Shown: positions 515 to 63,515 of the stretch, one piece after another
Numbering within the stretch: position 1 is the stretch's first letter
Layout of the letters: each line of letters begins with the position of its first letter
DNA from: Albula goreensis
Lineage: Eukaryota > Chordata > Actinopteri > Albuliformes > Albulidae
DNA: 64,000 nucleotides
Direction: 5' to 3'
Assembly (NCBI GenBank): GCA_022829145.1
Contig: CM040743.1
Coordinates: 9,327,646 to 9,391,645 of the forward strand
Position numbers and translations under genes: made by a program
Notes under the pieces: model-generated
The model's database searches: none
What the model was told of the DNA's origin: nothing
The model's input: the letters and a program-made list of their open reading frames with translations, nothing else

Positions 515-3157
515 ATGAAATCTCAGATAGCATCCCTACTGAAAAATCACACCCATCTGCAGACTGAATTCTGGGAGTTTTTTGATGACATCACAGCCTT
601 TTCACAGTCAGTTTGCCCTGAAGGAGTTGCTCCCTCAGGCGCAACTGCAAGTCAAAGGCCAAGGAGAGGGGCCAGGAGACGACTCAACGAGGTCACACAT
701 CCCGTTTCGGAGGAGGGGAAGGAGTCCCAAAATCTTGGAACACCGAAGAAGGAGGAAGGCCCGGTCTGTGACTGGTCAGTGGGAGGGAAAGACAGGCCTT
801 ACCGTGGCTCAAAACGTGCAGCCAAACCAAGAAGAGTCTCAAGGAAAAATGTAAGAATATAACCGGGTGTGCTCGATTTGGTGCCCTGCGATTAAAAAGT
901 ATTTGGGGTGGGGGAAACCCAGGGGCACAGATGGCGAGGGAGGACGGGGAGGTACATCACCCCCAGTTTCATAGGGAACCACAATCCGCCCCCCACCCAA
1001 CTTTTGAGGGGAAAAAAAAAACACAGCTGGAGAAACCACTGGAAATGAAGATAAGCTGTCAGCCAGTATGAAATCATGTAATTTTCCGTAGTTATGCAGT
1101 CAGACAGTGTAGGTCTTTGCTACCATGTGGGTTGGCCATTGCTTGGTTTGCCTTTCAACTGTCTTTGCCATCATTTGATCTGGGGGGATGAAAGTGCATG
1201 ACCCAGGCTGTTCAGCGTTGAAATGGAGCGCTGACTCCTCCCATCCAGCGCAGTGGTGGCACATTTGGTTTTGGTTTACAAATCGAGGTGTGTTTTGTAT
1301 GCAAATGACTGAACTTTTGGTGCTTAATTGATCATGCCTTGTACTGGCACATAGTCTACCTGCTATTCCAGTGCATGACTAAAAGTATTTGCCATACTTT
1401 TTGGTGTGTGTAATGATGATGGTGCTGATTTATGATTAGCAGAAGTGATCATTATCTGCCAAACAGACATTTGCATAGCTTTTGTTTTTGTAGTATTAGA
1501 TTACACAGCTGGGTATTTAGCAGAACGTTTCTAGGTAAAGCACTCTGCTCAAGGACAGGGTGCCGCAAGTGTATGGAATCTGAATAATTTCTTTTACGCG
1601 CATCCCATACTGCTCTGTTGAGCATGACCTCTGTAAAAACATTAACGCTGTTGTTGCATTCCTGAAGTACAAGACTGAAAAAAAAAAAACTCTCCCATCT
1701 TAGGGCTCGTTGTCCCGGCGCAAGAGGGGTGAACTCTTGTCACCAGGGTCCAGCACTCTTCCTCCAGGACTACACCCAGAGAAAAGAGTGGGGAGAAGGG
1801 GAGAGGAGAGAAGAAAGGGAGGCAATGGGGTGAACATCCCACATCCAGGTGAGAGCTCTGAAGGAGCTGATAAGCAGGCTATAGCGGATACCAACAGGGC
1901 CCTGGATTGCACAGTGAGGGAACTGGAAACTAATCCTCTCCTGCTGCAATTCTCTCTCCCCAGCTAAAGAAAGAGAGAGGAGATGGAGGATGATAGGGAA
2001 AAGAAGGAGCAAGAAGGCAGGCAGCATGAGGGAAGAGGAGGAGCGGGGAACGATACCCCAGCTTCCCAGCCCAACTCGGTCAACTCCAGCCCTGACCCCC
2101 CGGTCTGTGCCCAAAACGTCTCCCTCATGCCCACAGGAGAGAAAGTCATCCTCTGGACCAGGTGAGCCATGTCCCCAATCAAATTTTCTAAACCGATGGG
2201 CCAAAATATAATTGTGTCAAGTGGCTCAAGGCACATTAATGGACACCACCTGTTTTGATATGTCCATGTGTTCTTTGTCTTACTCATGTTTTTTTTGCAT
2301 GTGTGTTCTTTATTTTTTTTTTTTTTTTTTTGGGTGACAGGGAAGCTGACCGTATGATCTTGACTGCCTGTCAACAGAAGGGAGCCAAACATAGCACTTT
2401 CAAGACTGTGTCCACCCAGCTTGGGAACAAGACAGCCAATGAGGTCAATTTAGTGTTACAAAATATTTTTATTTATTAATAAAAGGCTGCACTATGCCGG
2501 CTACAACAGGATGGCTCAATATTTTCTTTACAACTTGCTGTTTCTACATAGACTTGTGTAATCTTAAGCTCCTATATAACATAGTCATCTATTGAGAAAG
2601 CCTAGTACCACAGTCAATACAAATGTCATGTGTCGTGAGAGGGTCAGAGCGAAAGCTCAGTTATTGATTCAGCATTGAAAGGTTTGAATCATTAACATTG
2701 ACTTTGTTGCCAATGTGGATGGGTGGGGGCTAAGTATTACTCTGTATATCAGTAAAAATATCCCACACACCATCTTTCATATGTTGGAAAAAAAAACTTC
2801 AAATAAGTAGTCTGAGAGGCTTAGATAAAAAAATGTTACACTCATTTGTTAATATTTTGAATTCATTTTTTTATAATGAAAATGTGCTTAAAGTTCAAAG
2901 TGAACAGCAAATGTTTACTGATACGATTGAATGACGATTATGAATCAGTTCAGTTAAGGTAACCATCAACAGTCATGGTGTCAAACTTCTCTTCTACAGC
3001 TGAACATTACTGATGTTTGGTGCACTGACCTGCCCCTCTGTTGTCTTTGATCCAGGTCTCCCTACGGTTCCAGGAGCTCATGCGCCTGTTCCACACCACG
3101 TCCCGTCCTGCCCACGACGCGGATCACCAGGCCACCTCTGACGATGACCCTGACTGA
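515..3157 (+). CDS. gon4l: GON-4-like protein, C-terminal exons (partial)
   Basis: GON4L is a nuclear transcriptional co-regulator; its zebrafish orthologue is ugly duckling. Five exons are visible: 515-850, 1704-1848, 1964-2161, 2341-2443 and 3056-3157 (TGA 3155-3157). The first begins with a PAH-like stretch ([12 protein letters not shown]) followed by basic low-complexity sequence. The last three encode the C-terminal SANT/Myb-like domain: [20 protein letters not shown], then [12 protein letters not shown] and [12 protein letters not shown], matching the known GON4L C terminus, and end in a short acidic tail. The 5' part of the gene lies outside the window. The SANT exons are near certain; the two middle low-complexity exons are less so. 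Exon 1964-2161 enters in phase 1 and must leave in phase 2 but is 198 bp, so one base seems to be missing, perhaps in the C run at 2096-2101. Upstream of that run the SANT frame carries a stop just inside the exon. Confidence 0.88.
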
Positions 3158-4020
3158 ACAGAACCAGACTGTGAGACGGTGTTGCTGGGGCTCATCAAAC
3201 TCTATGGCTGGCGTAGTCATTGTCTGTGGAGTACTCGGTGCATAAGCAGCCACGCTGATATGAAATGGGTCAGAACCAGATCCAGAGTGGACCTAATAAG
3301 AGTTGATGAAACCACCAGACCACAGAATTTTGGACCAGAAAACTCCACTATGTCACTGGGCTGTTAGGAATTGAACAAACGTTCAATTACATTGTTGCTT
3401 ACATGTAGGCATTGTGTTATTTCAAGGGTGTAAATTTATGGATGCAGTAAGAAGTTTTCCAGGACTGGTCCTGGAACAGAGGGTACTGAAATTATGCATC
3501 AGTGCTAAAAGCCTACTTGAGGAAAAAAGTGTGTGGGAGAGAGGCTAAGCAAAAGGTCAACAAGAGAGTCAGATGATTAATGTAGGACTGGAATCAATAT
3601 GTAGTGGAGAGACTGTGAAAAAGGACTGACCAATGCAACACCCTGCAAAGAATATTGAAGACTGAAGCTGCACCTAAAACTCAACAGACCAAGTTGGCAA
3701 AAAAAAAAAAAAAAACAATTGTGCCAGAATGATAATGATCAGCAACATTTTCACTTCCTGATCATTACTGAATTGAATTATACTTTTAAATAAAAGTAAA
3801 AGATACATCATCTCTTTAATATGGTACTTGCTGACAAATGTGGAAGAAAGTATTGTTACTCCTGTAAATATGGAACTGGGGTTTTGACCTGACTGAACGG
3901 TGTTTTTTACAGTGCAATATTTTGTGTTGGTTTCTTTTACCAGTGTAAATACAGATATTTATTTATGCAAATACATGGATTTTGAATAAAATTTTCCACT
4001 TGTATTTTTTATGCAATAAA
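3158..4020 (+). other. gon4l: gon4l 3' UTR
   Basis: Non-coding sequence after the gon4l stop. It contains a poly-A run near 3700 and three AATAAA hexamers at 3789-3794, 3985-3990 and 4015-4020, so the transcript probably ends between about 3.81 and 4.04 kb. Confidence 0.65.
3985..4020 (+). terminator. gon4l: poly(A) signals of gon4l
   Basis: AATAAA occurs at 3985-3990 and 4015-4020, with a T-rich stretch just after (4027-4038). An earlier copy lies at 3789-3794. Confidence 0.55.
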
Positions 4021-4544: not shown

Positions 4545-7500
4545 ATGACCACGTTGCTGTCCCTCTCCCCTTTTCTCTTGCTAAGTGTCATCGGACTCAG
4601 CGCCGCTCTTGTAGCGGCCAGCGATGTGCTCGAGCTGTCGGACGGAGACTTCGACTATACCTCGGCTGAGCACGAGACCATGCTGGTGGAGTTCTTCGCC
4701 CCCTGGTGAGGATAGCCTTCTTAAAAAAATGAGCAATGAAAGACGTTTTCATGCAAGTATTTCTTAGCTTTGCCGATGGCTGGGCAGCCTGCTTGATACG
4801 GCGTGATTGTGCTGCTGGCAAGCTTTCAGCTAGGTAGCGTTAGCCATCTCTTAGGAATTGGTTGCGGGCTGAGCTGATAAGATAACGTAAGCTAGTTCGA
4901 CGGCCGGTGTGCCTAAATTAATGTATTTGTGTAAGAAGCGAGGCACACCTCGAACAGTCAAGTGTACTTTGATGCAGTACCCACGACAGTAGAAACCCAG
5001 CTAAGTGCATAGTATTTTAAAAAATGGTCACATTGGCTGACCAGCTATCGAGATAGCATTAGCTAGAAGTTAGCCAGTAATGCATAGTCAGATGTGCCAT
5101 AGGTGAGTGGCTTACTGAGTTGTCCAAAAATGTAAAATGCAACATGACATGTAGGTTGCAGCCCATAATAGTTAATGTTCAATATCTGAAAGGCTATAAT
5201 CTGAATGCCAAATCTGTCAGAACTATGTCTTATAGGGTTGCAGTGTTGCGAGCTTAATGTTATCACTTGCGATGTAGACCTTGCTTCAGAATGCCCCAAC
5301 AGTATTTGACAGCGACATATGCCGTGCTTTCTAGCCACAGTAATCACAGTAGCGTCCGTAGTCGCCGTTTTTTCCTCAGCTAAGTAAATTCAGCCGATTA
5401 ATTAGCTCCCAGTTTACAAGATAATGTAATGACCAGTGATGCTCAGTGTCTTCATTACTCTGTCATCTGTCCTGTCTTCTCCCTCATCGCAACCCCCGCT
5501 CACCCTCTAGGTGCGGGCACTGTCAGAAACTGGCTCCCGAGTATGAATCTGCTGCTACAAAACTGAAGGGGATTGTACCGTTAGCTAAGGTAATGCAAAT
5601 TAGTCCCTCTGAGCCGAGGACAAAAGTCGTATCTGAGCGCTTGGATTAAAAATGACTGCAGATTCACTGGCCCTCGTGCTTAGTTGGTTGGGCGATAATG
5701 ATAAAGGAGTCGAAATGTTTGAGCCGTCCGCATGCCGTTAATGTCAATTGAATGTGTTGGAATTTTTGACCAGCACAACACTTTTGAAACTCGCCCAAAG
5801 ATGTGTGCAAGCAGAAAATGGTCTCCGCTGTTTTGTTACAGAGCCCTGTTGACACAGGGACTCTAAAATTTGTATTTCATTCACATTTCTAGTTCTTACC
5901 ATATAGCTGTGTGTAGATGAAAAATTAAATTAATGAAGCAACATCCAGAGTGGAACCCCAGGGTGTTCTATACTGTGATTCAGGGCCTGTTGTGATAGTT
6001 TGAAAGTTTGAAAACAGACGTAGATCCTCTGAAAAGAGTGTGGCATCTGAACATATTCAATTGAGCTGTCATCTGAAGTTTTATTTCCCCTGTTCTTGCA
6101 GGTGGACTGCACAACAAACTCTGAGACATGCAGTCGCTTCGGGGTGAATGGGTACCCCACGCTAAAAATCTTCCGAAATGGGGAGGAGGCTTCATCCTAC
6201 GATGGACCTCGTTCCTGCAGGTGACGTGTGTGAATGTGTTTGTGAGTTTTTCAAGGTGTGTGTTTGTAGTGCTCCCTGTGTACCCTGATTCAGTTTTTTA
6301 AAAGTCTGCTGTTTATTATACATTTTGTATAAATTTTGTAGTATCAGTAGTAGATACTGGTGTGTCTATGAAGTTTTCCTCAATTACCATGTGTTTTCAT
6401 GGATTAATGTCCAGTCAAATAAAAGCCATGTTTAAATATACAGTGCATTGCAATTCTTTTTTTTTGCAAGGTGTTTGTTGCACATATGTTTGTGTATGGT
6501 TGTGTGTGCATTCTTATGTATCTGTTTGCATGTATTTGTGTGTTTGTGTGTGTGTGTATACATGCAGAGGGCATTGTGAGCTACATGAAGAAACAAGCTG
6601 GGCCCAGCTCTGTGCCCCTGCGCAGTGAGGAAGACATGGACTCCTTCATCAACCACTTTGACGCCAGCGTGATCGGTGAGTGCCGTGCTCTAGGGTAGGG
6701 GGGCTGGGTCAATGGTAACACCACAAACCTTTCTTCTTGCATTACATGAGGACGGATTTCCTTACAGGTGCAATTGTTACAGATGTACACCCATTGTGGT
6801 GGGTGTGGGGTTAGCCTGGACCCAAAACCACAGACCCATACCATGTCCCAAATTCCATCAAACCACAATGCACTTCTGTTTCTTTAGAGATATGTGGCCA
6901 GAAGAATGGAATTAACAAAAAGTAAAAAAAAAAAAAAAAAAAAGGCCTCTGTACAATTAAAATGTAATATGAGCTCCTTGTTATTGTTAAGATGGATACA
7001 TTCTCCTGTGGGAGTTGTGTAAATCAGAAGGTACAAACCAGCCTGCCTCAATCCAGCCACAGCAGATGGTATTATTACTGTGAATTTCCCACTTTCTTTT
7101 TTGCATTTGAATTATGTATGGTTGGTTGTGCTGAAGCTAGTTTTACGATGAAAAAAAGAGAAAGACATTACTCATGCGCCACTGGTTTTTACACCATTTT
7201 GTGTATAATGAATGGGATTACTGTTGCTAGCTAGTTATTGCACGCCGGCCTCACTCAATTTGAGGGTCATTTGATTGCAAGCTTGTTTCCTGATTCTGTC
7301 TGTTCGGACTTGCGTGCCGCAGGGTTCTTCTCAGGGAGCGATAGCGAGCAGCTGGCGGAGTTCCAGAAGGCAGCCAGCGCCATGAGGGACAGCTACCGTT
7401 TTGGCCACACCACCGACCTGGGCCTTGGCCTCAAACACGGAGTGGAAACTGAGTGAGTGAGGGAGGGAGGGGAGGAGGGAGAGGTGACGTGAGCAGGGAA

Positions 7501-10500: not shown

Positions 10501-12317
10501 TCCTGGAAGAATATTTTGCTGGCCGATTGAAGCGTTATCTCAAGTCACAGCCTGTTCCAGAGAGTAACAAGGGCCCAGTCAAGGTGTGTGTGACACTGTC
10601 TTTAATATAACTATGGGTGTGTCTGTTGTCTTTAGTCTCTCTGTCTCTCTCATTCTGTCTGTGATCTCGTATGAATTTGTGTGTATATATGTGAGAAGCT
10701 CTTCCTCCATAATTATATATGTGTCTGTCTCCACCTATGATTCTTTAAAGAATGTATTTTGTTTGCATATGCATGTATGTGTAGTTTCTGCATTGCTATC
10801 TGTGATTCATCTGCTTTTCCCTGTAGGTGGTGGTTGCAGAGACATTTGAGGAGATTGTGAACGACCCAGAAAAGACGTTCTGATTGAGTTCTACGCCCCC
10901 TGGTGCGGACACTGCAAAAACCTGGAGCCCAAGTACAACGAGCTGGGAGAACAGGTGAGGCACATCTCACAAACACACAGCTTCACAACGGAAACGGATG
11001 CAGCAGACACACGGACACCTTTCAAAAGAGTGTCTTTAGTGTTCAGTCAGTGCTGGTTTTTGGAAGTAAGCATTTTTAAAAAAGTAACACCTAAGGATAA
11101 CAGGTGCTAACATTAAGTTTTTACCCACATTATTTCATGTTAAACCACAGTACCACTTAAAGTAAATACTTACTCTTTCAGCTGAAAGATCAAAGACCTC
11201 ATAGTGGTTCACACCTGACCTGCCTGTGCTGTAATTGTCTGCATGATGTTCAGTCTGTGGTGTTCTTAGACATTAGTGAGTTCCTTTCAGGTCTGAAATG
11301 TTTGATATAATGGGCTCTATGTCATCTATCTGAACTCCTGGTACAGTGGTCAGAATAGAGTGAATAACCTTGAGTGTTGCAATATATATTAATTGAAACA
11401 TTTTTCAGTAAAGTAAAAGAGCACTCTCAGTCATTCTGCATCTTTTCCTTTCCCCAGCTGTCCAGTGATCCCAACATTGTCATCGCCAAAATGGACGCCA
11501 CCGCCAATGATGTGCCGTCTGGCTATGATGTGCAGGGGTGAGACACTAACCTGTGCTGCTCTATCATGTCCGCTTTCATTTGTTTTCTCTCAGTTCCTCC
11601 TTTCTTTTCATCCTCATCTTCTGTGAGTCTGTGCCTTCCTGTCTGCCCCTCGTCTGCAGTTTTGAGTTTAAAGAATCCAGTGTATTCGGTATTAGTGTGA
11701 TATAGATAGAAATTAATCGTTAACTGTTAGCTCAAAACATATTGCTTTTATTTGATATTTAACTCAAAATGATGATAGTATGATTTGGTCTTCCCTATGC
11801 TTCTTTGAATTTATGTCTTGTGCCTCTCTTCCTGTCTGCTAGTCAATATCTGAGAGTGTATTGACTAAAATCTTAAATAACTGCCATCTAACTTTTGCCA
11901 TCTCCCATATTGTATCATAATCTATTTATCCATGTACACACAACTGCAGTAATGTACAACTGAAGGTTCACAGATTTGGTCTTTCCTGCCTAATTTTATT
12001 CATCTCTGTCTCAGCTTTCCCACCATCTACTTTGCACCTGCTGGAAAGAAGGAGGCACCTAAGCGATATGAGGTTAGTAGCCCATACTCACACATGACAC
12101 AGTTCACATTAATTGTGCACAAACGTAAACCTCTCCATGTGTATGACAGCGTGTTAACTGATGCTGTGTCTGTGTCTATCTGTCTGTGCGTACGTGCGTG
12201 CGATCCTGTGTTCCTCTGCTTTTCCAGGGCGGCCGCGAAGTGAAGGATTTCCTCAGCTACCTGAAGAAAGAGGCCGCACACAGTCTGGTCCTCAGTGGTG
12301 GCAGGGAAGATCTGTGA
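4545..12317 (+). CDS. pdia3: protein disulfide-isomerase A3-like (ERp57 family)
   Basis: An ER-lumen thiol oxidoreductase of the ERp57 family (a-b-b'-a'), which in known members works with calnexin and calreticulin on glycoprotein folding. Exons: 4545-4705, 5511-5589, 6102-6220, 6568-6675, 7323-7452, 7909-8022, 8461-8586, 9328-9510, 10475-10583, 10827-10954, 11458-11537, 12015-12072, 12228-12317; about 494 aa (human 505). The signal peptide is roughly residues 1-25. Active sites WCGHC are at about C55 and C403. The C terminus is GGREDL, an ER-retrieval-type tetrapeptide (human QEDL), but the lysine-rich stretch preceding it in human PDIA3 is absent. The b' region is divergent. Two exons break phase: 6102-6220 has one base too many near TTCCTGCAG, and 10827-10954 lacks one base near 10870-10875, which puts TGA in frame. 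Splice sites and both active sites are intact, so I read these as sequence errors rather than a pseudogene. Confidence 0.93.
7453..7780 (+). repeat. purine-rich tract in pdia3 intron 5
   Basis: Starting at the donor of the exon ending at 7452, about 330 bp of the plus strand is strongly biased to G and A (gagg/gaga blocks). The minus strand therefore reads as long spurious serine/proline-rich open frames. It is low-complexity DNA, not a gene. Confidence 0.75.
10130..10245. repeat. possible dispersed MITE/SINE fragment in pdia3 intron 8
   Basis: The stretch with TTTTGTTCCAACCCGGCAGT followed by A-rich sequence resembles interior parts of common fish non-autonomous repeats. No terminal repeats or target duplication were seen, so this rests on texture alone. 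Confidence 0.25.
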
Positions 12318-14970: not shown

Positions 14971-17900
14971 ATGATGGGCCGACCGGTTCTCGTGTTGAGT
15001 AAGTACAAAAAACTGATTATATTTTATAACAACACAAAATTTCACATGTGTGCATCTTTGTACTTTTGTTGAAGATAGCTTTTATGCGAATTAGTTTAGC
15101 CCGGACTGAGGCACACGCTTAGGGCCTAACCACGGCTTCCACAAACTGCTGGCACGAGTGTTAGCTAGGTAGCTGTAGCCACCGTTAGCCGGGTATTGTA
15201 TTCATTGTCACTTCTCTTGTCTTGCGAAGTAAGGAATTGATCATAACCACCTGGCTCCTGGGGTTGTATACCTGCTTGGTCGATTGTCATATTTCATAAT
15301 ATTTTAACATAGAAAACTGGTCATCAGGATAACTATCATTAGTTGGCTTTAATATGACTAATGTAGCTAACCAAGCCCAGAACAGAAGCTCAGACCCTCG
15401 TTGAGACAGTGGAGCGGAACTCGTGTTTGCCTAGTCATGTTCCGGCATTGTACTTAGCAACGACTCTTTCCACATGTTAACTGTCCATACTAGACAACAG
15501 CTCGCTGCTTTTTCATACCAGAATAATTACAGAAAACGATCCAGAGTCACCAGTCCACATGATATTTGGCTGCATAGCTTGCTAGCAACTGATCCGTTAA
15601 TCACAGACTGCACAGACCTAAGGCGATCGAGTAGTCACAGTTATCGGGTGTGTATTATCGGCAGCTCGGGTTGGTTATCTCCAATAACGGACAATTTGTC
15701 TACACCTGTCCTCTTTATTGGTTTTCCCTTTCATTTAGTATTTTTAGACATTTTTTTCTTTGAAATGGTTTTCATACACAGTACTGTACCACTAGTAAAC
15801 CCATCACTGATCTACATAATACTGATTGACTGATTTCCTGTAAGGATTTAAATTCCGTGTGAAAACACAGTCAACTCTTTATACTGGTGCATTGCATTTT
15901 TGTAGTTTGAGTATTGCGAATTTGTGTGTTTTGTTTATGAATGCATTTTTATTGTTCCACAAACTTATTCACGGATTGCTTAGCAGTATGAAATGCTGAA
16001 TAGCAACACCTTTGGGTAGTTGCAGTAGCTTTTGCCTTGACCAGGTACAGTAAGAACAGTTGAATACCCAGTGGGATGGGCTGTTTGCTTCACAAAATAA
16101 GGGTCAATACCGAAATGAAACAAAATCCGTGGAAATCTACAAAATCTGAATGATGAGTCGCATTTCAGTTGAAAAGTAGTAATGCGTCCCTCTCTTTCCC
16201 ATCCTAGGCCAGAATATGAAAAGGGAGTCTGGTCGGAAAGTCCAGACTGGGAACATCAGTGCGGCGAAGGTGAGTGCGTGCGCCTGTGAAACGTTTCTGA
16301 GGGTGTAGGAGTGGGATGGGCCTGCTTAAAAATATTAAGCAGAGGTACACCACCTGGACGGAACTTACGCAACACTGTTTGATGGGTCCATGTTTTGAGA
16401 CTCCTTTATTTCTGTCTAGCCAGTCTTGTCAGTCTTTATGCAGTCCTAAATTGAAATGTCCTTGTGGGCTCATGATGACTATGGATTTTTTTTTTTTTAA
16501 ATCATATTTTTGCGTTTGAATTGCAGACAATAGCAGACGTGATCAGGACATGCCTGGGTCCTAGAGCCATGATGAAGGTATGCATATAAATATATTATTT
16601 GTGTTTCTTTGTCAGAGACAAATGATGTAACAACATGGAACACAGCAGTAAGCAGCTGCTTAATCTTTAAGTTGTGCTAATTAAAACTGCTCTGGTATGA
16701 AACCACTGTCTAGATTCATGATGGTAAAATGCTTCATTGTCTTGTGTGTCACTTGTGTGTTGAACACTCTCTATGTTTGCTGTAAAGCTAGTTTCCTGTC
16801 CTGGTGTTTTCTGCAGAGTCTTTTTTCCTCAAGGGACTTCCTAGCTAAATGTAAACTAAGCATAGAAAATCAACATATGAAGCAGTAATGTTTATGTTAA
16901 AGTCTAAGTTAACTGCTGCACAGCACAGAGCTGAATTTCTCTGACTCAATCATTTCCTTTTATGGTGTCTTTGAACAGTCTCTGCCAGCATGTGTAGTTT
17001 CTAAGCAGTCCTGTCTCACCTACATGAAGTCAGTGGACCAGGATTGACTTGTCATTATAAAATGACATTTAAAGGGCTTGGATCATGAAATAGTTGATCT
17101 TCCCAATTTTTGACATCTCTCTTTGATCATTATCATGTTATTGATAGTGAAGTGGATGAATCTGTTGAACAATTATAAAGATCTGCTGGTTTCAAAAGGA
17201 GGGCCACATGGCTGTCTGCAAATCTTCCGCTTCATTCCTTTCCCTCTGCCGCTCTGTGTGCAGATGCTGCTGGACCCCATGGGAGGGATTGTGATGACCA
17301 ACGATGGCAACGCCATCCTGAGAGAGGTGAGAAACAACATGGCCATGAAGCCAGGTGTGGTCAAAGGTGTGAGCAGGGTGTCCTTTTCCCACCATGGGTA
17401 ACATGTGCTCTTTTTGTGCTGTAGCTAGTCATGATAATGTTTGTGGATTGGGCTGGAAATATAGACTACATGTATGTACATGCATTACTTCCTCTGGAGG
17501 TGCTTGAAGGCATGAGCCAAGGGTGGCATCACCCATCATCCTGTCACTCCCTTTCTGCTACTTCAGTAAAGGCCAATGCATTTTAAAAAGTTGTCACCTG
17601 GCAGTTTTTATAACAGAATACATGTATTTTTCAGAATAAATTTTGCCTTCTGTGAAATACTTGACTTTTTTAACAGCTGCTGACAGCTGCAGTATTGAGA
17701 AATTCAGCATGTTAACCCTTGAGCCCAGAATTAAAGATGAGAGAGTATCCGTTTAACCAAATGTAACCCAATATTGTGGAAACCCATTTAAATAAGCAAT
17801 TATAATGTTACTGACTCAGTCCATGTTAATCTCCTTTTTCCAGTGAAAACTTGCCATTGTAATGTTCGCTTTCACAGTCTTTATATGAACTGAACCATTG

Positions 17901-18666
17901 GGTTATAGCAGCATTACTAAATGTTGGGAACGAGCATGGGGCGATCACACTGTGATCCCTCCCCTGTCCACAGATCCAGGTCCAGCACCCAGCAGCCAAG
18001 TCCATGATCGAGATCAGCCGTACGCAGGACGAGGAGGTGGGAGACGGCACCACCTCTGTCATCATCCTTGGTGAGCGTTCTGATTGGTTATACCAGCTAA
18101 TCCATTCCCACTGCACAGTACACACACTTGGATCTTTCTTGGTTGGATTAGCCTCAACTGCTAGATGATCCACATGCACCACACAGACACTTCCTGGTAC
18201 ACACATAGTGGGATCTTACACTGACCCGGGGTTACTAGCTTTACACTGACCTGGGGTTACTAGCTTTACTATTCACACTTACCATATGCACTTCAGGGAA
18301 CATAAATGTGTCTTTTACATTGAGTAATGTAAGCCTTATATCAGGGGCCTCTTGCAGGGTGTAATCTCTTAAAAAGGACTTTGGCCCATGCCCAAAACTA
18401 TATATATACCATATATCCTTTCACACTTACAAATATACATATAAATTGTATATCCATATCATCATACTTATTCTAGGAATATTGGCCAGAAACTGCATTT
18501 TCGAGGACACGTGTGTAATTTTAACATGTAGATTATGTTCATCGTGATGTGCAGTTTGTGTTTTATGATGTGAGGTGCCATTTATATAATGATGCATGTT
18601 CTGTCTTAAAGGTCATGCGTATATATGGAGGTAAGGTTCACCAAACCCGACTCTTAGAAAACCAGT

Positions 18667-18700
<34 letters not shown>

Positions 18701-20604
18701 CCATCTACTGTTTTAGTGTTCTCAAACAATTTTGAAAACAAATCCAAATGATGAAGATTAAAATGGACATTTCCATTTAACTTAGCCAAATGTAAGGACA
18801 AAAGTTGAGTGAATTCCATTTCTGGACCATTATATGCCAAACACGTCATTATTGTTGATACTGAGAGGAAAAAAAAATACAAGTAAACCAAAATAGGTAT
18901 ACATAAAACATATGGCTTTTCAACACCACACTTGAAATCCTCTTATCCCTCGGCCCTCAACTGTTCCTCCCTCCCTGGTCTCATTCTCTGTTCCTCCTTC
19001 TTTCTCTCTTTCTGTCTCCAGCTGGTGAGATGCTGTCGGTGGCCGAGCAGTTCCTGGAGCAGCAGATGCACCCTACTGTGGTGATCAGTGCCTACAGACA
19101 GGCTCTGGACGACATGCTCAACATGCTCAAGGACATCAGGTAAGCATCACCACCCTGTGTCTGTCATCAGCCTCTCACTCATGAGCTCCCTCTAGTGTCT
19201 GTTTGCCATCTTGCTTTACCTTCTCTCAGCTCACAGGTGTAGCGTGGACACCTTCAGTCAGCACATTTACATGTTTCTGCTGGTTGAGTTTGCGCACACA
19301 CTGTTGCTGATTGTTTGCGTGGAAACAAAACGCGTGTACCTGTCCATTAGTACACACACACGCACACTGATGGTTGTCTCCAGGCTCCAGTTGATAAATT
19401 GTACCTTTCCTGGGCAGCACTCCGGTGGACACCAGCAGCAGGGATATGATGCTGAAGATAATCAACTCGGCCATCAACACCAAGGCCCTGAACCGCTGGT
19501 CCGATCTGGCCTGCAACATCGCACTGGATGCTGTGCGCACTGTGGAGCTGGAGGAGAACGGCCGCAAGGAGATCGACATCAAGAAGTACGCCAAGGTGGA
19601 GAAGGTAAGGCCAGAGGCCCACTCCACAGCACAGGGCTGCCTTTGGGAGCTGTGCTCCTGGGAGCCAGGTATGGGATGGGAGAGTTGTGTTGGACGACAA
19701 TAGCAGTCTTGAGTCAAGCAAGATAAGATGTTCTCTTTACCTGGTCAGGGTCAGTTTTATACTAGGTGTATCTGTTTTTGTTTGTTCAGTTTTTCTCAAA
19801 AGCCTTCTCTGCCGCTTCAAATGTTTGTGATGTTAACGGTCTTTTATATGTATTTAGTGAGGCACATTTGAATGATCACAAACATAAAAACCCTAATTAT
19901 TCACAATTCTTTGTCTTTGTGTGTGTGTGTGCGCGCGTGTGCAGATTCCTGGGGGCATCATTGAGGACTCATGCGTGCTGAAGGGTGTCATGGTGAATAA
20001 GGATGTGACACACCCACGCATGCGCCGTCTGATCAAGAACCCACGCATCGTGCTGCTGGACTGCTCTCTCGAGTACAAGAAGGGCGAGAGCCAGGTACGC
20101 TCCTACCATAACATCAATAGGCCAGAATTTAATGTGGAGGAAGTGCCAGGTATCATTCATTTTTCTACCTCAAATTGGGAATGAAAGTAGATCTCTTTGC
20201 CCTTAGTTAAGATCAGCCATTGGCTTCTGATGCCTGTTTAGTCGTCTGAGAAGGTTTTGACTACGTATTGTGTGCTTGAGGCTGTACTATATTTGAATAT
20301 GAACACAATCAAAGGGCACATTCATAGAGCCAGGGGCTGGGAACACAATACATGTACACATGCTGATTTGCTTTGTTCACATGATAAGAACGGAAGTCAA
20401 TGGAGACCACATGCTCACTCGCTTGTTCACTCCATGGTTTGCCAACTCCATGGTTTGCCACCCTGCTCTCACACTAGTTAACTCGCATGTTTCTGAAGCT
20501 CTTTTTTTGATGAACTGTAGATATCTCCACTGCAGACAGATCAAATTCATGTTTGCTTTAATTAAATGAAAGGACGGTTTCCAGATTCTCTCTCTCTCTC
20601 ACGG

Positions 20605-20647
<43 letters not shown>

Positions 20648-32250: not shown

Positions 32251-32270
32251 TTTATTTTTGTAATTTTATT
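32251..32270 (-). terminator. tmem79: poly(A) signals of tmem79
   Basis: TTTATT on the plus strand at 32251-32256 and 32265-32270 reads AATAAA on the minus strand, about 750 bp beyond the tmem79 stop codon. Confidence 0.55.
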
Positions 32271-33011
32271 TTCATATTTTTTAAACACCATAGTATTTGT
32301 AGGTATAAAATATGTGGAAATGCTACATCTTATACAAGAATTTGTCACATTAATTTGGTTAGTCTACCAACAGGGAAAGTCCTCTACCAAAGTCTTCGCA
32401 TGAATCAATGACACACACAGAATAAAGGACAGTTTTACCTCCAGTCACTGCTGTCAAACAGAAATAGGACATCCACATTTAAGGTGTGGTGATGCACGCT
32501 TATGGTACATGATTAAAAAACATTGATGAGGATAGACAAAAAAGGCTTTCAAGACATGTTCTATACTCCTTCGCCTGGTTTTCTCTAGTTACTACAGAGC
32601 CCAAACATTTCACCTGACAGCAGTTCATTCTGGCTAGGTCTTGTCAAACAAGGGCCTGGCTAGGCCTGCTTGCTATAAAACTAGATAAACTACTACATTC
32701 TACTACACCTCCTGCCCTACAAATCTATCATAAATGCATGTAGCTTTAAGAGGCGATCTGTTACCCTTGTGTGAAGTACAAATTACAAACCCAGTGCTGT
32801 TTTAGGCATGACGGAAATGTAAAGTCCATGGAGGCATAGAGCACAGAGCATGGTTTGCAGCAGGTGGTACTTCAGTGCTGCACCCTGCCACAGCTGTCCA
32901 GGTGGTCCTGTTCCAGCCCAGTACTCTACACAGAGCTGCCAATCCACTCCATGGAAAAGTCTATCAGTGCAAGCTCCACCCCAAACCCAAGGCAGTCCCA
33001 CCCCCCACGTC

Positions 33012-40600: not shown

Positions 40601-43386
40601 TGACAGTTCAAGTGAGTTTTTCCTGTATTTGGGCATTTCAGTTGGCCATAATATAAGACAACAAGGATGGATTTAATTTTGTAGCATGACAGATTTTCAG
40701 TCTTTCTGTCTCTGTTGTGTTTCTCATTCAGGGTTTTCAAGTGCTGTGCGATCTTGCAGATGGATTTTCAGGCTTGGGGTCAAAGGTCACAGAGCTGCTG
40801 CATGACTCGTATGGTGGTCGGGGCATCCTGACATGGGGGCTGGCCCCTGTCAATCATCCAGACTCGGTGAGTAATGGTGATGATGATGCTGCTCCAAGAT
40901 CAGCAGGTGAAGTCTGTGTAAACACCATTTGAGATGGAAGTGAAGCGGTCCATGAAAGCGAAGCCAAGAGGTTGTTTAATAGGACATTCCAAACACACGC
41001 AGTGTACCCATGTGAGAGGTATTTGAAAAAACTTGGCAAGACTCTGGGTTTTTATGAGAAACATATTCTGATTTTTAATATTATTGTAATGATATGAAAT
41101 AATGTGGCATTTTTAGGCTTATGACACAAAAGTCATTGCCAGTATGGGGGCTTTGGTGTATAGGATCTTGTTGTGTAGCATTATTGTCGTATGGCTGAAG
41201 GCATTTGAGGTTGGTCTATCTGCACAACTGAAATATTGTATATTGAACCCAGAGTCCAGTGAAGGAGTTCTACCACCTGATGAACTATGCCTTGGGAACA
41301 ATAAATCTGGCCAATCACAGCTCTTTCTTCTGCCCCCTGACCCTGAGAGGGGGTTTGGGTATACGACCCACTCCACCTACCTCCTTCCCACACCTCAACT
41401 ACGACGTGAGTTTTCATAATGTATAACTGTGTTGCAGCTCCAATATGCTTCTTATGAAAGTTTTCCTGGCTGAATGGACCACCAACCATAATGTGTCTTC
41501 TCCACCAGCCTACTCTGTGGTACCACTCCAGTGCTGTTCTCGCTTTGGCTATGGACTCCCTCACTGTGTCCTACAGGCTGAGGCACGACAGCGCCCCCAT
41601 GTGGCAGCTGGCAGATGCTCTTGCCGTCTCTGGGAGGAAGGTGAGGAGATCTGACCTTATCTAAATTTGAGTATGAAGTCAAGGCAAACAATGAAGAGAT
41701 GCACTGGCAGGTTCAAGTGGAAGCGGTAGATTTGATGTGTGTGTGTGTGTGTCTTAGGTAGTGGCTGCATATGGAGCCGTCCCCTTCCCCATGACACAAG
41801 GCAGCTGCCTCCCTGACGCCCTGGGTGGATACACAGACACGTTGCCATGGAGACCCCTATCGGCTTGTTCAGAGCTGGGCGATGGGCGCTGCTTCGGCCA
41901 GTCAGTGACTCTGAGGGGCCTAGAGGGGCAGAACCTCACCAGGTGAGAATGGAGTCTCAGCCCAATTGGGTTGTGCCTTCATATGACCATGTGTGGTAAG
42001 AGTATTGAGAGCCTGACTCCTCACCCCATCCCCTCAGCCCGTTGACCCCTGGGACGGAGCCCCCCACCCCCCTGCACAATGCCCGAAGTGGAGAGGAGGT
42101 GTTGGCCTGCTTCATGAGATCTCACTACCCCGCCACTCCAATGTGAGTACTGTCCTGAAATCTGCCTCCGTAATCCTGGGCTGCATCCATGTGGAGTACT
42201 GAAAATAAACTGAATTTAACAAAACATTTTAAAAAAACTAAGCAGGCTATGTGTGTATGTTTAGTTGAGCCTGTTTATTTTTTTTTTTTTAAATCTACAT
42301 GTCCCACCTTTTCTTGTTTTTAATTTATGTTAATCTTTCACTGCTTCACCCCCCCAAAATTTTAAACAGTCATATTTGTTGGATAGACTATATATATGTG
42401 TATCAGTCTCTGCATAATACAAAAATGTTTCTTTCTCTCTCCCTCCCTCCCTCCATTTTTCCTCCATCTCCCTTTGTAGGGCAGTGCAGCTGCTTTCCAG
42501 CCCGAGTAAACTGACCCCTCCCTTTCCCCAGATTTTCAGCCAATCCCTGGACCCACAGGGCTTCCTTCGCTCCCAAACCACACCCCCTAACACCGGTGAA
42601 GCACCCGGACTTTATCTTGTCTGGTTAACCTGTTATGAGTTTGTGTATAATCACAAAAATATGTGTTTTTCTATTGTGATGTGTGTGGGCACATTGTAAC
42701 CAGTCCCATATATATTTTGGCAGTTTGATACTCTTAATATTTGATATTCTCTCAAATTATCATAAGAATATATCCAGTGAAAGTGTATCAAATGTATTGT
42801 AAGAGTATAGTGTATTTGCTAAAAGTGAGTGTATGTGTACCTATAACGGCATGTGCTTGTAGCTAAATGTAAGCATTAGGACACCTAACTTTGGACATGC
42901 ATGTACCTCATTTTGAATGTGCATATTTGTGACCACAAGTGTGCAAATATGTAATTTTGAGAGTGAATTCACTTTTAATATGAGCCTGCATCTTCCTAAA
43001 AGTGTGCATATATGTAATCATGTGTGTGCTTAATTATGAGCATGCATGTACCTAATCTAAGTGTGTATCACCCTATCTGTGAGCGTGAATGTAACAGTGT
43101 ATGGATATTGGCTCTCTGACAGTCTCTCTCCCCTGCAGTGTCCAGTCTGCCCGTGCTCACCACCCTGCAGTCGTCCCCAGCCTTGGGCCCCTGGCTGTCC
43201 GAACTGCAGCGCGGAGCCTGCATTCTGGACCCCCGCCGAGTGGCCCCCAGCTTCCTGTCCCAGGGACCTGAGATCGGGGAGATTCAGGAGGCCCTGGAGC
43301 AGCTTCGCTCCATGGCGCACTGTTACCGCGATGACCGGGGTGGGGTCCTGCACTCCTCCTCTGAGGACGATGATGATGATGACTGA
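37616..43386 (+). CDS. msto1: misato 1, mitochondrial distribution and morphology regulator
   Basis: Misato is a tubulin/FtsZ-like protein; vertebrate MSTO1 acts at the outer mitochondrial membrane in fusion and network distribution. Fourteen exons with fully consistent phases: 37616-37699, 38525-38660, 38845-38914, 39082-39157, 39285-39342, 39777-39927, 40420-40534, 40732-40866, 41253-41405, 41509-41640, 41758-41942, 42038-42142, 42480-42595, 43139-43386; 587 aa (human 570). The N terminus [20 protein letters not shown] is the misato segment II signature. Further conserved blocks are [54 protein letters not shown] and [10 protein letters not shown]. The C terminus ends [10 protein letters not shown], an acidic run not in the human protein. 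No frame break was found. Identity is near certain. Confidence 0.97.
37700..38524 (+). other. msto1: msto1 intron 1
   Basis: An 825-bp first intron rich in TAGC/GCTA words, for example acgttagccg near 37705, ctaactagctagct near 37863 and gctaactagcta near 38068. No coding sequence was seen. Confidence 0.8.
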
Positions 43387-55334: not shown

Positions 55335-55365
<31 letters not shown>

Positions 55366-58300: not shown

Positions 58301-61300
58301 CTGTTACAAAATGTTGAGTATAATTGGGTGGTGAACTGGGCTTGCAGCTCCCAAGTCAGCAGGTTTGATTTTCAAGTGTTGTCCTCAGCAGCAAGCATCT
58401 TGACCTGAGCGGCCTCATTATTTTTACAGGTCAGACATGTTAACCTGTGAAAAATAATCCAGCTGCCTGAATGGATTGTATATTAAAAATATAATTTCTG
58501 TAAGTGGCTCTGGATAGGGGGTGTCATAGAGAAGTGTGTTTTTGAGGGATGCATGATTGGGTTCCTGTTCGTCCCCAGGTGCATGGAGATCAGCCACTGA
58601 GGAGTGGGGCACAGAGGACTGGAATGAAGACGTGAGTATCGGATATTTTTTTTTTTTTGTCATCTGTTTTTGCATTCTTAGAACAGCAAAACTCTTGAAA
58701 GACTCACAGTTACTTGTATATGATGAGGTTAAACCTTGCCTACCTTCAGCAGAGTCTGCGTTACAAACAAATGAATGGTCCGATTATGCTGTTGAATTGT
58801 TGTTACCTCCTGAATTGGGCGCACAGCTGGGATTGGGTGGGTGAAATTATAAACTGCTCAGAGCCAAGCAAATCCCACCATCAGAAGTCTGGTCACACAA
58901 ACCCTATTCCAGAGTTTGTAGTCTAGGCCATCCCAGTGAATTATGTAATCCAGATCATATTTGAGACAAACCACATCTATGATCCCTGAACAGCTAGAAA
59001 CAGCCTTAACATCATCATTAAATAAAATATGGATAAATGTTAGTTTGTGAAACGCTCTCGTCTGGGCCTGTAAGAATTTGGGGCTGGGATTGGCAGCCCT
59101 GGTCCTGAACAGCCACAGGGAATACTGATATTCAGGGTTTTCATCCCATCCATGATTAAAATTGTTGAAGTTCAATTACTTAGTTTTTTAATTTGACAGT
59201 TTTAATGTTTAATGTGGGATGAACATTTTAATGCCGCAAAAGATATTTATACTGTCAGAAAAAGACAGTTATGTTACAAAGAATGATTACTTAATTTTCA
59301 TCTGAGAACTTTTAATCAGGAAGGTCACTTACCAGATGAGTAATGCTTTCATTTGCTTTACTGTGGAAAGTGATTTCTTTTGAAAGAGAGTACATTTTTA
59401 ATAGATTTATTTGTAGACCTCCAGTCAAAATTGATAAAGTCCTAAATACACGGGGTTTGGGAACCCCTGGTCTAGGGCTTGGTCCCAGCTGTAGGTTGGT
59501 AATTCATGGTTTAGTCTGTGGTTTCTTGTTTGGTGTGTGGTCTCTGATGGTTTGGGGAATTTTTACTGTCTCAACAGTTGTCGGAGACTAAAATCTTCAC
59601 AGCCTCCAGTGTGTCATCCATGCCCCTCCCACAGGAGAATGTCACCATCACTGCTGGACAGAGGTGAGCACTTCCATCGCCTTCATGGCACCGCAGCAGC
59701 AAAAATCAAGACTTTATTCAGAACTTATTTTGTTTAGCGAATTTCTGAGCACCTGAGGGCAGCTGTTGTATCAGATTCAACATGTCAAATGTTTGAGTTT
59801 CTGAGTTTGATGCAGAGACTATTTCACTCAACAAGCTCGTTATTTGCTGCCATGCCAACGGTAATTTCAATTAATTGTCCTTTCAATTTGGATCGTGGGA
59901 TACTTGCTGGGTAAGACGTCACCGGTTTTTGGAAGTCTCATATGTGCAGCTCTCAAGGTTTTTAATCTGAATTTGGGCTTTAATGCATTAGTGTTGCTAC
60001 TGAGGTTGAGAATCCTTTGATCGGAAGAGATAGCTATGAAATGTAAGGCATGCAATATAAGTGGTCTTACCATTTCAGGCAAACTGTAAAGCTTACATCC
60101 AGAAAAACAACAAACAGCAGTCTTGCCTCCTTCTCTGTGCTAGCTGACAGTCACCCAGCTGGTGAAGATTGTACTACTGGTTCATTTTCAAGATTTCTCA
60201 AGGGGGTTTATTTTAGTTCGCAGTAGCGCTGTCAACACCATAAGTGAATAATTAGATTTGAAAGGAAAGAGCCGTGCCATCTGACGACTTTCTGAATATG
60301 GCAACAACCCACGTCACTCCAAAGGTGCAGCGTTTTATTCCTGAGCAGTTCTTTTCATATGTAAAAATACAGTGACAATCCTGTTACTCAATTGGGAACG
60401 TATGTGAATGATCATTGCACTACTGTTTACCAAAACAGGAAAAACGAGCTGCTTATTTACTCGGGTTATGTGTTGTCCTGACTATTCCAGGCTGCATATA
60501 ATAAATTAGATCCTTGCTCTGGCATTCTCGGTTTGTTTCCTGCTTGTTTTCCCAGTTTTCCCCCACTTTGTTGCTCAGCCTGGTCTCGGAACAACCTTGT
60601 GGCCCTTGGTGTAAAATCAATCTTTGGTGAACAATGATGTAGTTGAATACACTTTTGGGTCCATGTATTCCTGCAGCTTGATGTGATTATGTGTGTTCTG
60701 CCGCTGGTCTGCATTGTTCCTGAGGCATGTGCTGGAGATTCCATTGTTAGCTCTGCACCCCTTGACTGTGCTCACAGGCCCCAACAAGAGTGTCATTGTT
60801 CACAGTGTGACAGAACATCACGCTTTGCAAGGCGTTTGCAAGACTGGCTAGCTCATAGTGGAGTTGAGACACCTGAAGTTAAGGGTTACATAAGTACTGC
60901 TAGCTGGTATCAGTATGTGGTCGATCCAGCAGTCCTTAAACATTGGTGTTGGAGAATCCGTATGATCTTTTTATTCTGGTGTAATGACGGGAGAACTGCA
61001 CGTGCAGCTAGCTGACACACAGACATTTATGTGAATTATTTGTGGGGGGAGGCAGTTGAGCTGCAGTAGCTGCTTCATGATAATGGCGATGTAGCATTTT
61101 TTTCACCTGGAAACCGTCTGCAAAACTTACTACAAAACAAAATTAATGTTCACAAATGTATCATTGTATCATCAGCTGTTTCAGTTAATGTTACCGGTAT
61201 ACTTACTGTATGCCTTCATTTGTTTCCTAAACCCTCCCCACACTCTTCTCTCAGAATTGACCTGGCAGTCCTGTTGGGGAAGACACCCCCATCGTCGTCC

Positions 61301-63515
61301 TCGGAGACAGAGGCAGCCCCCTTGGAGGCCCCCAGCCCCCCGCCCTCTCCCAGGCACTGGTCTTCAGTAACTCAAAGCAGGGCGCCCCGCTCTCCCAGCC
61401 TGCATCCAGCACCCCCTATGCCCAGCACAGCATGGTCAGTGTGCGTCTGTTTCTGTGTCTAGAGTTTTGATCTCTCTCCAGTTTCTCACACTTCCAGCAA
61501 TCGATAACCTTTGCTGGCTGACTTATGCCCTTTGCTCAGCAGAGATTATTCTTTTTCCCCACAATACCAGGGAACAGATCTTCATTAATAATTATTGATT
61601 TATTCCATTCATTTTTATCATGTGCTCTGCAAGAATACTGTAGTTATGTATGTGCTACACTGAGTTATCTTTGATAGCAGTTATGACATGTACCTAATGA
61701 GAACCTAATGGTCATCCAAAAAGACCATTTTGGGGCTCACAGCCATTTGGAGCTCTCCACTGCTGAATGGGATCTATCCCCTGCTATAATTTTCTGGTAC
61801 AGTCACTTCCACCATTCACCCTGTCATCACCCTTTCCCTTAAATGCCCTCTTTCTCTCTCTCTCTCTCTCTCTCCCTCTCTCTCCAGGCCAGTATGCTGA
61901 GCAAGAGCTTCGCTGAAGTAGGGGACCCCAAGGGGGGCACTGGAGGGACGACGAGCGGGTCTCAGTTCCTGGAGCAGTTCAAGACAGCCCAGGCGCTGGC
62001 CCAGCTGGCCGCCCAGCACTCCCAGACGGGACCCCAAAACCCTGCAGCCTCTTCTTCCTCCTGGGACACCAGCCCCACCTCCATGGGGCAGTACGGTAAG
62101 GGGAACGCGTCAGAGGATTTCGGTTGGAGGCGGGGTGGGGTGGGGGTGGTGTAATCTGAGGGGTTTACCCAGAGAGTGAGGATATGCATTACTCACAAGC
62201 CTGGATTCAATTACCATTCATCCTCAACTTTGATTATCCACGATTAAATGCAGGTTTATATGTTTTCTCCAAAAGCACAGTGTTCAGCGATCGCCAAAAT
62301 TAATGGGTGGGGGGGGGGATAGCTAGCCTGTGTTTTGGAATAAGCATAAAGGACTAATGTTGATGTAATCATGCAGGATGCTTTCAACACGTTCATCACT
62401 TGTACCCTGAGCGACTGGAATAGTCTGAGGAAATATCTTTGTGTAGAAAGGCAAATACTGTAAAGCTTGCAAGCTGTGCAGATCACTGAGGGAAGGCTAG
62501 GAAAATCTGAAGCAATACATGCTCAAAGTAAGACTGATTTGGGGTTTAGGATGTCTAGAGCAAATGGAGTTCCAAAACTGGTGACTACTTTTCTAAATAA
62601 ACTAGATTTACATTGGTACCATGCTTGCATTAAGGCTTTGGTGGGGTGGTGAATTCAGGCTTAGCAGAGAGCTCACAATGGCTGGCACTGCCTTGTTCTA
62701 GTTAGCCCGTTGGCTGTGTAATATTAGAGCTGACTAAGATGAATGCCGATAACAGTGTTTAAAAAAAAAAAAAAAAAAAAGGTAAATAATTAACTACCAC
62801 AGACAGTCTGTGATGATCCAAGGTACCAATTAGGAACCTGCTTCAGGGGCTGACGTGTTTCAGTTTTCAGGACTAATAGGGTGGTTTTGCCTGTTTCATG
62901 CATCTTTGCTTCAGATTCCTCTCTTGTTCTGTGTCAGTTAACACTAGTTACTTACTGCTTCATCTGTTTATCTGAATAAAACTATATAGAGAACATAACT
63001 GATACCCCCTACAAGTCATTTCTCAAGTGGGGTATCATGTATGTACTAGTATGTGGAAGAGGCATGTTTAACATATCAGTGGCTTGTAGTGTTTGGTATG
63101 CTTATAAAATTATAAAAGCATGTTTAAAAAATATAAGTCAGTTTGTCATGGACTTCCTTTCCTCCACCTCCTGCCTCCAGACCTGAAGCCCCAGCCTGAG
63201 CCTGCAGTGGTCCACTCCTCCTTCACTAAAAGGCAGCCATACCAGCCCACGTCCTCGGCCGGCTCCTCCATGATGGAGGCCTTCCTGCAGGACAAAGGCC
63301 CCTCTTCGTCCCCAACGCCAGCCTCCCTCCCCCAACAGGCTGCCCCCTCCCCCATGCCGCCCCCCTCCTCGCCCCTCTCCAAGCCTCCCGCCCCAGCCCC
63401 CGCCCCGGGCCAGCAGGTTTCCCCTGCCTCCACGGACCCGCAGTCCTCCAGCCCCCAGCCCCTGCAGCAGCACAAGCTCAAACAGCAGAGGAAGAGGACC
63501 TCCCTCACCACCAAG
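45891..63515 (+). CDS. ubap2l: ubiquitin-associated protein 2-like, 5' half (partial)
   Basis: UBAP2L is an RNA-binding protein that nucleates stress granules. A non-coding exon ends at 45916 (aaacag|gtaaat). Coding begins at 48460: 48460-48555, 50186-50263, 51299-51409, 52399-52573, 53006-53101, 54141-54186, 57480-57586, 57906-57965, 58579-58631, 59578-59663, 61255-61434, 61888-62095, 63181-63515; it continues beyond the window. MMTSVGSGRARGSWEQ is the family N terminus. The UBA domain spans about residues 48-92 (LIDITGKDQDESMIALHDCN), followed by an RGG/RG-rich region at about 125-205 and ATEEWGTEDWNEDLSETKIF. QRIDLAVLLGKTP and SQFLEQFKTAQALAQLAAQ fall in the UBAP2/Lingerer region, then a proline/serine-rich stretch. 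The 20-codon exon 57906-57965 may be a cassette. Exon 61255-61434 is one base short for its phases; homology moves to another frame (QALVFSNSKQG) after CCCCCC at 61336-61341. Confidence 0.95.
45917..48417 (+). other. ubap2l: ubap2l intron 1 (5' UTR intron)
   Basis: A 2.5-kb intron splitting the 5' UTR, with a cctctag acceptor at 48411-48417 and 42 bp of 5' UTR before the ATG at 48460. TAGC/GCTA and AACGTTA words are dense between 46540 and 47080 and recur near 47460-47720. No gene was seen inside. Confidence 0.75.
48556..50185 (+). other. ubap2l: ubap2l intron 2
   Basis: Non-coding, with A/T homopolymers at 48729-48744, 49246-49263, 49682-49697 and 49972-49983. No coding, tRNA or clear snoRNA signal was recognised. 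Confidence 0.7.
51424..51470. promoter_or_regulatory. two ZNF143-like sites in ubap2l intron 4
   Basis: The 14-mer ttgggaaatgtagt occurs at 51424-51437 and 51457-51470, 33 bp apart. Its reverse complement resembles the ACTACAWTTCCCA motif of ZNF143/THAP11. It may equally be a small tandem duplication. Confidence 0.3.
51990..52130. repeat. possible dispersed repeat fragment in ubap2l intron 4
   Basis: ttgtcctggagggctggcat followed by a Pu/Py-alternating interior resembles the ends of common fish non-autonomous transposons. Only one end is recognisable. Confidence 0.35.
54187..57479 (+). other. ubap2l: ubap2l intron 7
   Basis: A 3.3-kb intron with several long T tracts (54718-54738, 55339-55365, 57265-57280, 57320-57339) and a G run near 57091. 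The frame 55236-55688 crosses a T tract and lacks homology. No supported gene lies inside. Confidence 0.7.
58632..59577 (+). other. ubap2l: ubap2l intron 10, containing repeat-like sequence
   Basis: The intron includes ggcagccctggtcctgaaca near 59092 and ttgggaacccctggtctagg near 59457. Both resemble ends of the common fish MITE class with a CCCTGGTCCTG terminus. No supported gene lies inside. Confidence 0.5.
59664..61254 (+). other. ubap2l: ubap2l intron 11
   Basis: A 1.6-kb intron with no recognised coding, RNA or mobile sequence. Confidence 0.65.
61850..61880. repeat. CT microsatellite before ubap2l exon at 61888
   Basis: A run of CT dinucleotides forms the pyrimidine tract of the acceptor at 61881-61887. 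Confidence 0.9.
62096..63180 (+). other. ubap2l: ubap2l intron 13
   Basis: Non-coding; contains a G run (62309-62318) and an A run (62761-62780). Nothing else was recognised. Confidence 0.65.

What the first reader, a model, noticed from the sequence alone, without database searches (positions are those of the whole stretch)
2096..61341. One-base frame breaks in five of seven conserved genes, mostly at C/G runs
Exon lengths disagree with flanking splice phases by exactly one base in gon4l, pdia3 (twice), glmp, tmem79 and ubap2l, and homology switches frame inside the same exon. Nearly all breaks are explained by losing one base from a short C or G run. All other exons, including 28 in cct3 and msto1, are in phase. 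This pattern points to homopolymer errors in the assembly rather than decay of adjacent conserved genes. An automatic annotation would truncate or split these genes.
Basis: partly seen in the sequence, partly recalled or inferred. Interest (0 to 1): 0.75.

Follow-up and report, generated by a model that had tools for sequence, protein, structure and literature searches.

The report
Assembly errors split conserved fish genes
Six one-base reading-frame breaks in five neighbouring fish genes are almost certainly small mistakes in the assembled sequence, not damaged genes, so the finding is ordinary but would mislead automatic gene annotation.

Summary
The breaks are in the sequence. I mapped 69 exons (9,743 coding bases) of gon4l, pdia3, cct3, glmp, tmem79, msto1 and ubap2l: 63 are in phase without premature stops, 6 exons in 5 genes are off by one base. 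As read, five are losses; pdia3 exon 3 is a gain (or a two-base loss). gon4l is the weakest case: its C run at 2096-2101, where the finding starts, is as long as in the gene's second copy on C20, and other passable splice pairs exist. The C/G-run claim is weak: only tmem79 and ubap2l hold C/G runs rare in random exon stretches. Evidence from the same assembly: tmem79 and gon4l copies on C20 are open where compared; glmp hits lie only at the window; 55,980 bases of conserved tubulin, potassium-channel and HSP70 exons elsewhere hold 5 frame steps, 3 of them plain one-base losses in short runs (about Q40), against 6 in 9,743 here (about Q32). A decayed cct3 copy on C20 looks different. Best explanation: residual consensus indels in a locally under-polished patch. 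Reads would decide; none were available.

The parts
1964..2161 (+). gon4l exon 3 (of those in the window); one base short if the strong intron before it is used; break then between 1964 and about 2087, not in the C run at 2096-2101; weakest of the six
   Evidence: phase 1 in, 1 out, next exon needs 2; codon model support 1966-2052 but gain only 4.6; C20 copy, read by eye, has an intron at the same place and an open exon; C run equal in both copies; three other splice pairs with acceptor at 2069 would keep the frame
1849..1963 (+). gon4l intron before the broken exon (115 bp); without it 1704-2161 stays in frame but carries a TAA at 1965-1967
   Evidence: donor at or above 89%, acceptor at or above 44% of the other real sites in the window; the stretch itself scores as coding in that frame; intron at the same place in the C20 copy
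6102..6220 (+). pdia3 exon 3; one base too many (or two too few) at its 3' end, about 6213-6220
   Evidence: 7 bases instead of 6 between conserved residues against PDIA3; three frame-restoring splice pairs found, each with a donor or acceptor below the 2% mark of real sites
10827..10954 (+). pdia3 exon 10; one base short, about 10870-10880, beside an A run
   Evidence: tblastn frame switch; PDB alignment; codon model gain 17.8, interval 10863-10883
29172..29436 (+). glmp exon 5; one base short, about 29313-29345
   Evidence: stop in carried frame; solved GLMP 6nyq aligns on both sides; Pfam NCU-G1 on both halves; codon model gain 18.4, interval 29313-29369
34467..34660 (-). tmem79 exon 2; one base short at about 34539-34550, at a run of 5 C on the minus strand
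   Evidence: frame switch; codon model gain 12.6; C20 copy open and one base longer there
61255..61434 (+). ubap2l exon 11; one base short, codon-model interval 61274-61342, among several C runs
   Evidence: frame switch; codon model gain 14.2; phase 2 in, 2 out, next exon needs 0
14971..23632 (+). cct3, 14 exons, in phase (control)
37616..43386 (+). msto1, 14 exons, in phase (control)
   Evidence: Pfam on the first nine exons

Best explanation
The breaks are residual one-base consensus errors, mostly deletions in or beside short single-base runs, left in a long-read-type assembly that was incompletely polished here. The genes are intact in the fish. Shown: the breaks, their size class, the absence of premature stops in the other exons, second copies of tmem79 and gon4l that are open where compared, and the same error type elsewhere in this assembly at a lower density in the exons sampled. 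Inferred: that reads would disagree with the assembly, the platform type, and that this stretch of C3 was under-polished.
For: 6 of 69 exons break by a net one base; 0 of 63 others have a premature stop; donors 62 GT and 1 GC, acceptors 63 AG, partly by choice of borders. Protein match continues on both sides of four breaks. tmem79 on C20 is open and one base longer at the break; gon4l on C20 is open with an intron at the same place. One more gon4l break lies 4.5 kb upstream of the window, one base short against C20. The 3 glmp hits in the genome (query exons 2-4) all lie at the window, so a real break would leave no intact copy found. Elsewhere 5 frame steps in 55,980 bases of conserved exons; 3 are plain one-base losses in short runs, the 2 in HSP70 hold more than one change. 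Window rate Q32.1; the VGP paper gives Q30-35 before polishing, short indels causing frameshifts, and a locus left unpolished with frameshifts in TLK1 (PMC8081667, passages). Decay with six one-base indels and no other mark had chances of 1.9e-3 to 4.4e-9 over six assumed parameter sets.
Against: No reads or transcripts could be examined. pdia3 exon 3 is a gain or two-base loss, rests on phase and homology, and its exon 4 acceptor is weak (8% of real ones score no higher); the codon model named the other direction there with a gain inside the control range. gon4l exon 3 is not seen above controls; unspliced it would be a stop, not a shift; three other splice pairs above the 2% marks keep its frame. 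48 C/G runs of 5 or more in in-phase exons are intact. INTS3 upstream (23 of 23 junctions joinable in frame, a lenient test) and ubap2l exons 14-24 (1,546 bases) show no break, so the error is not uniform. 12 of 12 long Kv exons elsewhere have no frame step.
Confidence: 0.92

Rival explanations
1. Real decay: some of these genes carry true frameshift mutations in this lineage, for instance tolerated after a whole-genome duplication.
For: The region has a duplicate on C20 with its own gon4l and tmem79, and true decay occurs there: C20 cct3 lacks several exons and has changed residues.
Against: Breaks are of the one-base class, no premature stops in 63 exons; no second glmp found; the decayed C20 cct3 looks different; similar one-base losses hit tubulin and Kv genes elsewhere.
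Confidence: 0.03
2. Misread gene models: some breaks come from wrong exon borders, not from the sequence.
For: gon4l and pdia3 exon 3 rest mainly on splice phase. For gon4l three splice pairs with acceptor at 2069 keep the frame and pass the 2% marks of real sites; for pdia3 three pairs exist but each has a site below the mark.
Against: Four of six breaks lie inside one exon with homology on both sides. The C20 gon4l copy has its intron where the window's strong donor lies and codes for the stretch that those pairs would skip.
Confidence: 0.04
3. Programmed frameshifting or RNA editing restores the frames.
For: None found; slippery sites were not searched for.
Against: Solved PDIA3 and GLMP chains read straight through the sites; C20 tmem79 and gon4l need no shift; five unrelated genes at once is implausible.
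Confidence: 0.005

Closest known systems
Short consensus indels of CLR-based vertebrate assemblies before short-read polishing (Rhie et al. 2021, PMC8081667; passages read)
   Same: Q30-35, short indels, frameshifted genes, patchy polishing with an example locus left unpolished
   Different: Platform and pipeline of this assembly unknown; here about Q32 in the window's coding bases and about Q40 in the sampled exons elsewhere
Homopolymer-length errors of nanopore-only assemblies (Drechmeria, PMC7500977; passages read)
   Same: Indels, mostly in homopolymers, split conserved genes; errors without an obvious pattern
   Different: That paper saw more insertions than deletions after polishing; here 5 of 6 window breaks read as losses, and many longer runs are intact
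True decaying duplicate gene, cct3 on C20 of this genome
   Same: Conserved gene with disrupted reading
   Different: Several exons not found and residues changed, not isolated one-base steps

Membership tests
Residual assembly consensus indel errors | Isolated one-base indels with conserved coding sequence in register on both sides | tested here: met
   four breaks by homology inside the exon; gon4l and pdia3 exon 3 by phase only
Residual assembly consensus indel errors | No other marks of decay in the same genes | tested here: met
   0 of 63 in-phase exons with premature stop; 63 donors GT or GC, 63 acceptors AG, partly by choice of borders
Residual assembly consensus indel errors | Sites enriched in single-base runs | tested here: inconclusive
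   2 of 6 window intervals hold a C/G run found in under 6% of random intervals; elsewhere runs of 2-5 of C, G or T, read by eye, no control
Residual assembly consensus indel errors | Same error type elsewhere in the same assembly | tested here: met
   5 frame steps in 55,980 bases, plus Kv on C8
Residual assembly consensus indel errors | Reads contradict the assembled base | not testable with these tools
   no reads held
Unitary or duplicate pseudogenes | Premature stops, splice loss, mixed indel sizes | tested here: not met
   the unspliced gon4l reading would hold one stop; a true case on C20 differs
Programmed ribosomal frameshifting | Shift needed in relatives too | tested here: not met
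   solved PDIA3 and GLMP, C20 tmem79 and gon4l read without a shift
Programmed ribosomal frameshifting | Slippery sequence and stimulator | not tested
   no search made

The most novel reading that the evidence does not exclude
The one-base changes are real in this fish, so that five neighbouring conserved genes, including a glmp with no other copy found, are broken together in a duplicated block that is losing genes one base at a time.
Probability: 0.02. Interest if true: 0.6.

Novelty: not a real feature. Interest (0 to 1): 0.12.

Why it matters
It is a warning, not a discovery: in this stretch about one coding base in 1,600 is off, so automatic annotation would truncate or split gon4l, pdia3, glmp, tmem79 and ubap2l, and a study of gene loss that counts frameshifts in this assembly would report false losses. 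Second copies in the same genome can serve as internal controls where reads are not at hand.

Tried and rejected
Led nowhere or corrected: one search had wrong borders at seven places (pdia3 exon 11, cct3 exons 5 and 12, msto1 exon 6, ubap2l exons 5, 6 and 7) and so showed false breaks; I moved them and repeated. One search stopped with an error at the last tmem79 exon after printing the other 68; one search completed it. Rfam gave nothing at gathering score in the window. The paper searches (listings only) gave me no paper on this locus and no neutral indel ratio, so the decay estimate uses assumed ratios. The species was not identified.

Rejected: decay, wrong gene models for at least four breaks, programmed shifts (see rivals). 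The C run in gon4l as the break site was rejected. An in-frame reading of gon4l 1704-2161 without the intron was considered because the 115 bp score as coding; the C20 copy has an intron at the same place, so I prefer the spliced reading, not certain.

Limits of the density comparison: the elsewhere sample is hand-chosen after seeing the hits, 50 pieces from three searches (12 Kv, 15 beta-tubulin, 20 pieces of 18 tubulin exons that I call alpha from recall, 3 HSP70). Left out before the count: all shorter and multi-exon hits of the same searches. Some of these look broken too: Kv on C8 (L028, one step) and the HSP70 copy at C11:15.934-15.938 Mb (split pieces). In-frame stops that the tool listed in the sample were not counted: Kv L020 (2), tubulins at C23:21171145 (1), C2:35903798 (2) and C9:24787802 (1), HSP70 C12:37290350 (1). 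HSP70 on C12 holds more than one change per step, so 5 is a lower count. The p of 0.0025 is only a guide. The run contexts were read by eye. The odds of the best explanation went from 0.93 to 0.92 and of misread models from 0.03 to 0.04 on re-reading (gon4l splice pairs).

Full report
What is there. The window is part of a ray-finned fish chromosome (inferred from the genes), at C3:9327646-9391645 of a 932-Mb assembly in 208 contigs. It holds the 3' part of gon4l, pdia3, cct3, glmp, tmem79 (minus strand) and msto1, and the 5' part of ubap2l. I set 69 exons by splice borders and reading frame and followed the phase from exon to exon; seven borders had been moved after a first pass. They hold 9,743 coding bases. 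Identity was checked against solved chains for PDIA3, GLMP, CCT3 and a Myb-like domain that I know as GON4L by recall and by Pfam for several genes; human TMEM79, UBAP2L and MSTO1 were recalled, not fetched.

The six breaks. In 63 of 69 exons the carried frame is open; none of them has a premature stop, and the inner borders are 62 GT and 1 GC donors and 63 AG acceptors, which is partly by choice. Six exons break: gon4l exon 3, pdia3 exons 3 and 10, glmp exon 5, tmem79 exon 2, ubap2l exon 11. After each I reset the phase to the one that the next exons demand. Four show protein homology in two frames within the exon. The codon-usage model, trained without the exon scored, gives these four gains of 12.6 to 18.4, above all 63 controls (maximum 10.2); gon4l exon 3 (4.6) and pdia3 exon 3 (4.0) stay inside the control range, the latter being broken at its very end.

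Corrections to the finding. In pdia3, 7 bases lie between two residues that in PDIA3 are separated by two residues, that is 6 bases: one base too many, or two too few. The codon model named the other direction, with a gain too small to count. For gon4l the finding starts at 2096, a C run that I take as its gon4l site. The genome has a second gon4l on C20: read by eye, it has an intron at the place of the window's 115-bp intron, its exon is open into the Myb-like domain, and its C run is also 6 long. A window break must lie upstream, and the codon model agrees (1966-2052, weakly). Against a gon4l break stands that three splice pairs with an acceptor at 2069 keep the frame and pass the 2% marks of real sites; they would skip a stretch that the C20 copy codes for. 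For C/G runs, random exon intervals of the same length hold a C/G run as long in 5.6% (tmem79), 5.2% (ubap2l), 40.5% (glmp), 73.8% (gon4l), 73.2% (pdia3 exon 3) and 100% (pdia3 exon 10) of draws; the in-phase exons keep 48 C/G runs of 5 or more. So 'short runs' is fair, 'C or G' is too narrow.

Error or decay. C20:15.695-15.755 Mb overlaps a duplicate of this block, in reverse. Its tmem79 reads exon 2 in one frame and is one base longer than the window at the break. Its gon4l is open where compared. Its cct3 is decayed: of 13 exons queried (exon 1 was too short), 7 were found at E 1e-3 or better over together (2, 3, 7, 8, 9, 12, 14), with changed residues and a stop near the end of exon 14. 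That is how decay looks in this genome, and the window genes do not look so. glmp (exons 2-4) matched nowhere else by protein (3 hits, all at the window). The DNA piece 28300-35000 showed no near-identical second copy, such as a leftover haplotype, among the 40 candidates scored of 362. Expected decay marks besides six one-base indels were estimated under assumed, recalled ratios; the chance of seeing none ran from 1.9e-3 to 4.4e-9 over six settings.

Local or general. In 50 long conserved coding pieces elsewhere (55,980 bases; Kv, tubulins, HSP70) I count 5 frame steps in 4 exons, on C25, C23, C21 and C12. Read by eye, three (C25, C23, C21) are one base short in runs of T, C and G; the two HSP70 steps on C12 hold more than one change each. 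A further Kv gene on C8, outside the 50, is one base short beside a T run. That is about Q40.5 against Q32.1 in the window, a ratio of 6.9 (binomial p 0.0025), a guide only, since the sample is hand-picked and tandem copies may include pseudogenes. Around the window: INTS3 upstream can be joined in frame at 23 of 23 junctions (a lenient test on a recalled protein), gon4l has one more one-base loss 4.5 kb upstream, ubap2l exons 14-24 downstream (1,546 bases) are in phase. cct3 and msto1 without a break are expected by chance in 12% at the window rate.

Known background. The VGP paper states that CLR-based assemblies had Q30-35 before polishing, that short indels giving frameshifts were the commonest error, and shows a locus left unpolished with frameshifts in TLK1 (PMC8081667, passages). 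A nanopore study found most errors in homopolymers and that BUSCO overlooked short indels; it holds that PacBio assemblies are spared homopolymer-length errors (PMC7500977, passages). The platform here cannot be told.

Verdict. The breaks are in the sequence, but very probably not in the fish. The finding is right in its main point, off in some details, and ordinary.

Noticed in passing
C20:15733.7-15736.0 kb (loci L041, L048): A decayed second copy of cct3, 7 of 13 queried exons found, beside second copies of tmem79 and gon4l that are open where compared: a duplicated block after gene loss.
   Followed up: partly
C3 about 4.5 kb upstream of the window (locus L043): A further one-base loss in an upstream gon4l exon against the C20 copy.
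   Followed up: yes
C12:37290350-37292266, C11:15934442-15937647: HSP70 copies with split frames, either heavy local error or pseudogenes; only the C12 copy was looked at in letters.
   Followed up: partly
window about 31556-31928: A dispersed repeat: apart from the window itself and two tmem79 pieces, the rows of the 72-match list fall here, at 69-97% identity, with a separate 77-base block at up to 91%; looks like a SINE-type element, not identified.
   Followed up: no
window 27837-27842: glmp intron 3 has a GC donor, the only non-GT donor of 63.
   Followed up: no
window 515-850: gon4l exon 1 gives the highest break score among the 63 control exons (10.2) though open in one frame; may be composition or a hidden double shift.
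   Followed up: partly
locus L020 (C12:33898540-33899943): A Kv1-type gene without a frame step but with two in-frame stops.
   Followed up: no
window 4545-12317: pdia3 sits between gon4l and cct3; in human, PDIA3 lies on another chromosome than GON4L and CCT3 (recalled), so this may be a fish-retained duplicate.
   Followed up: no
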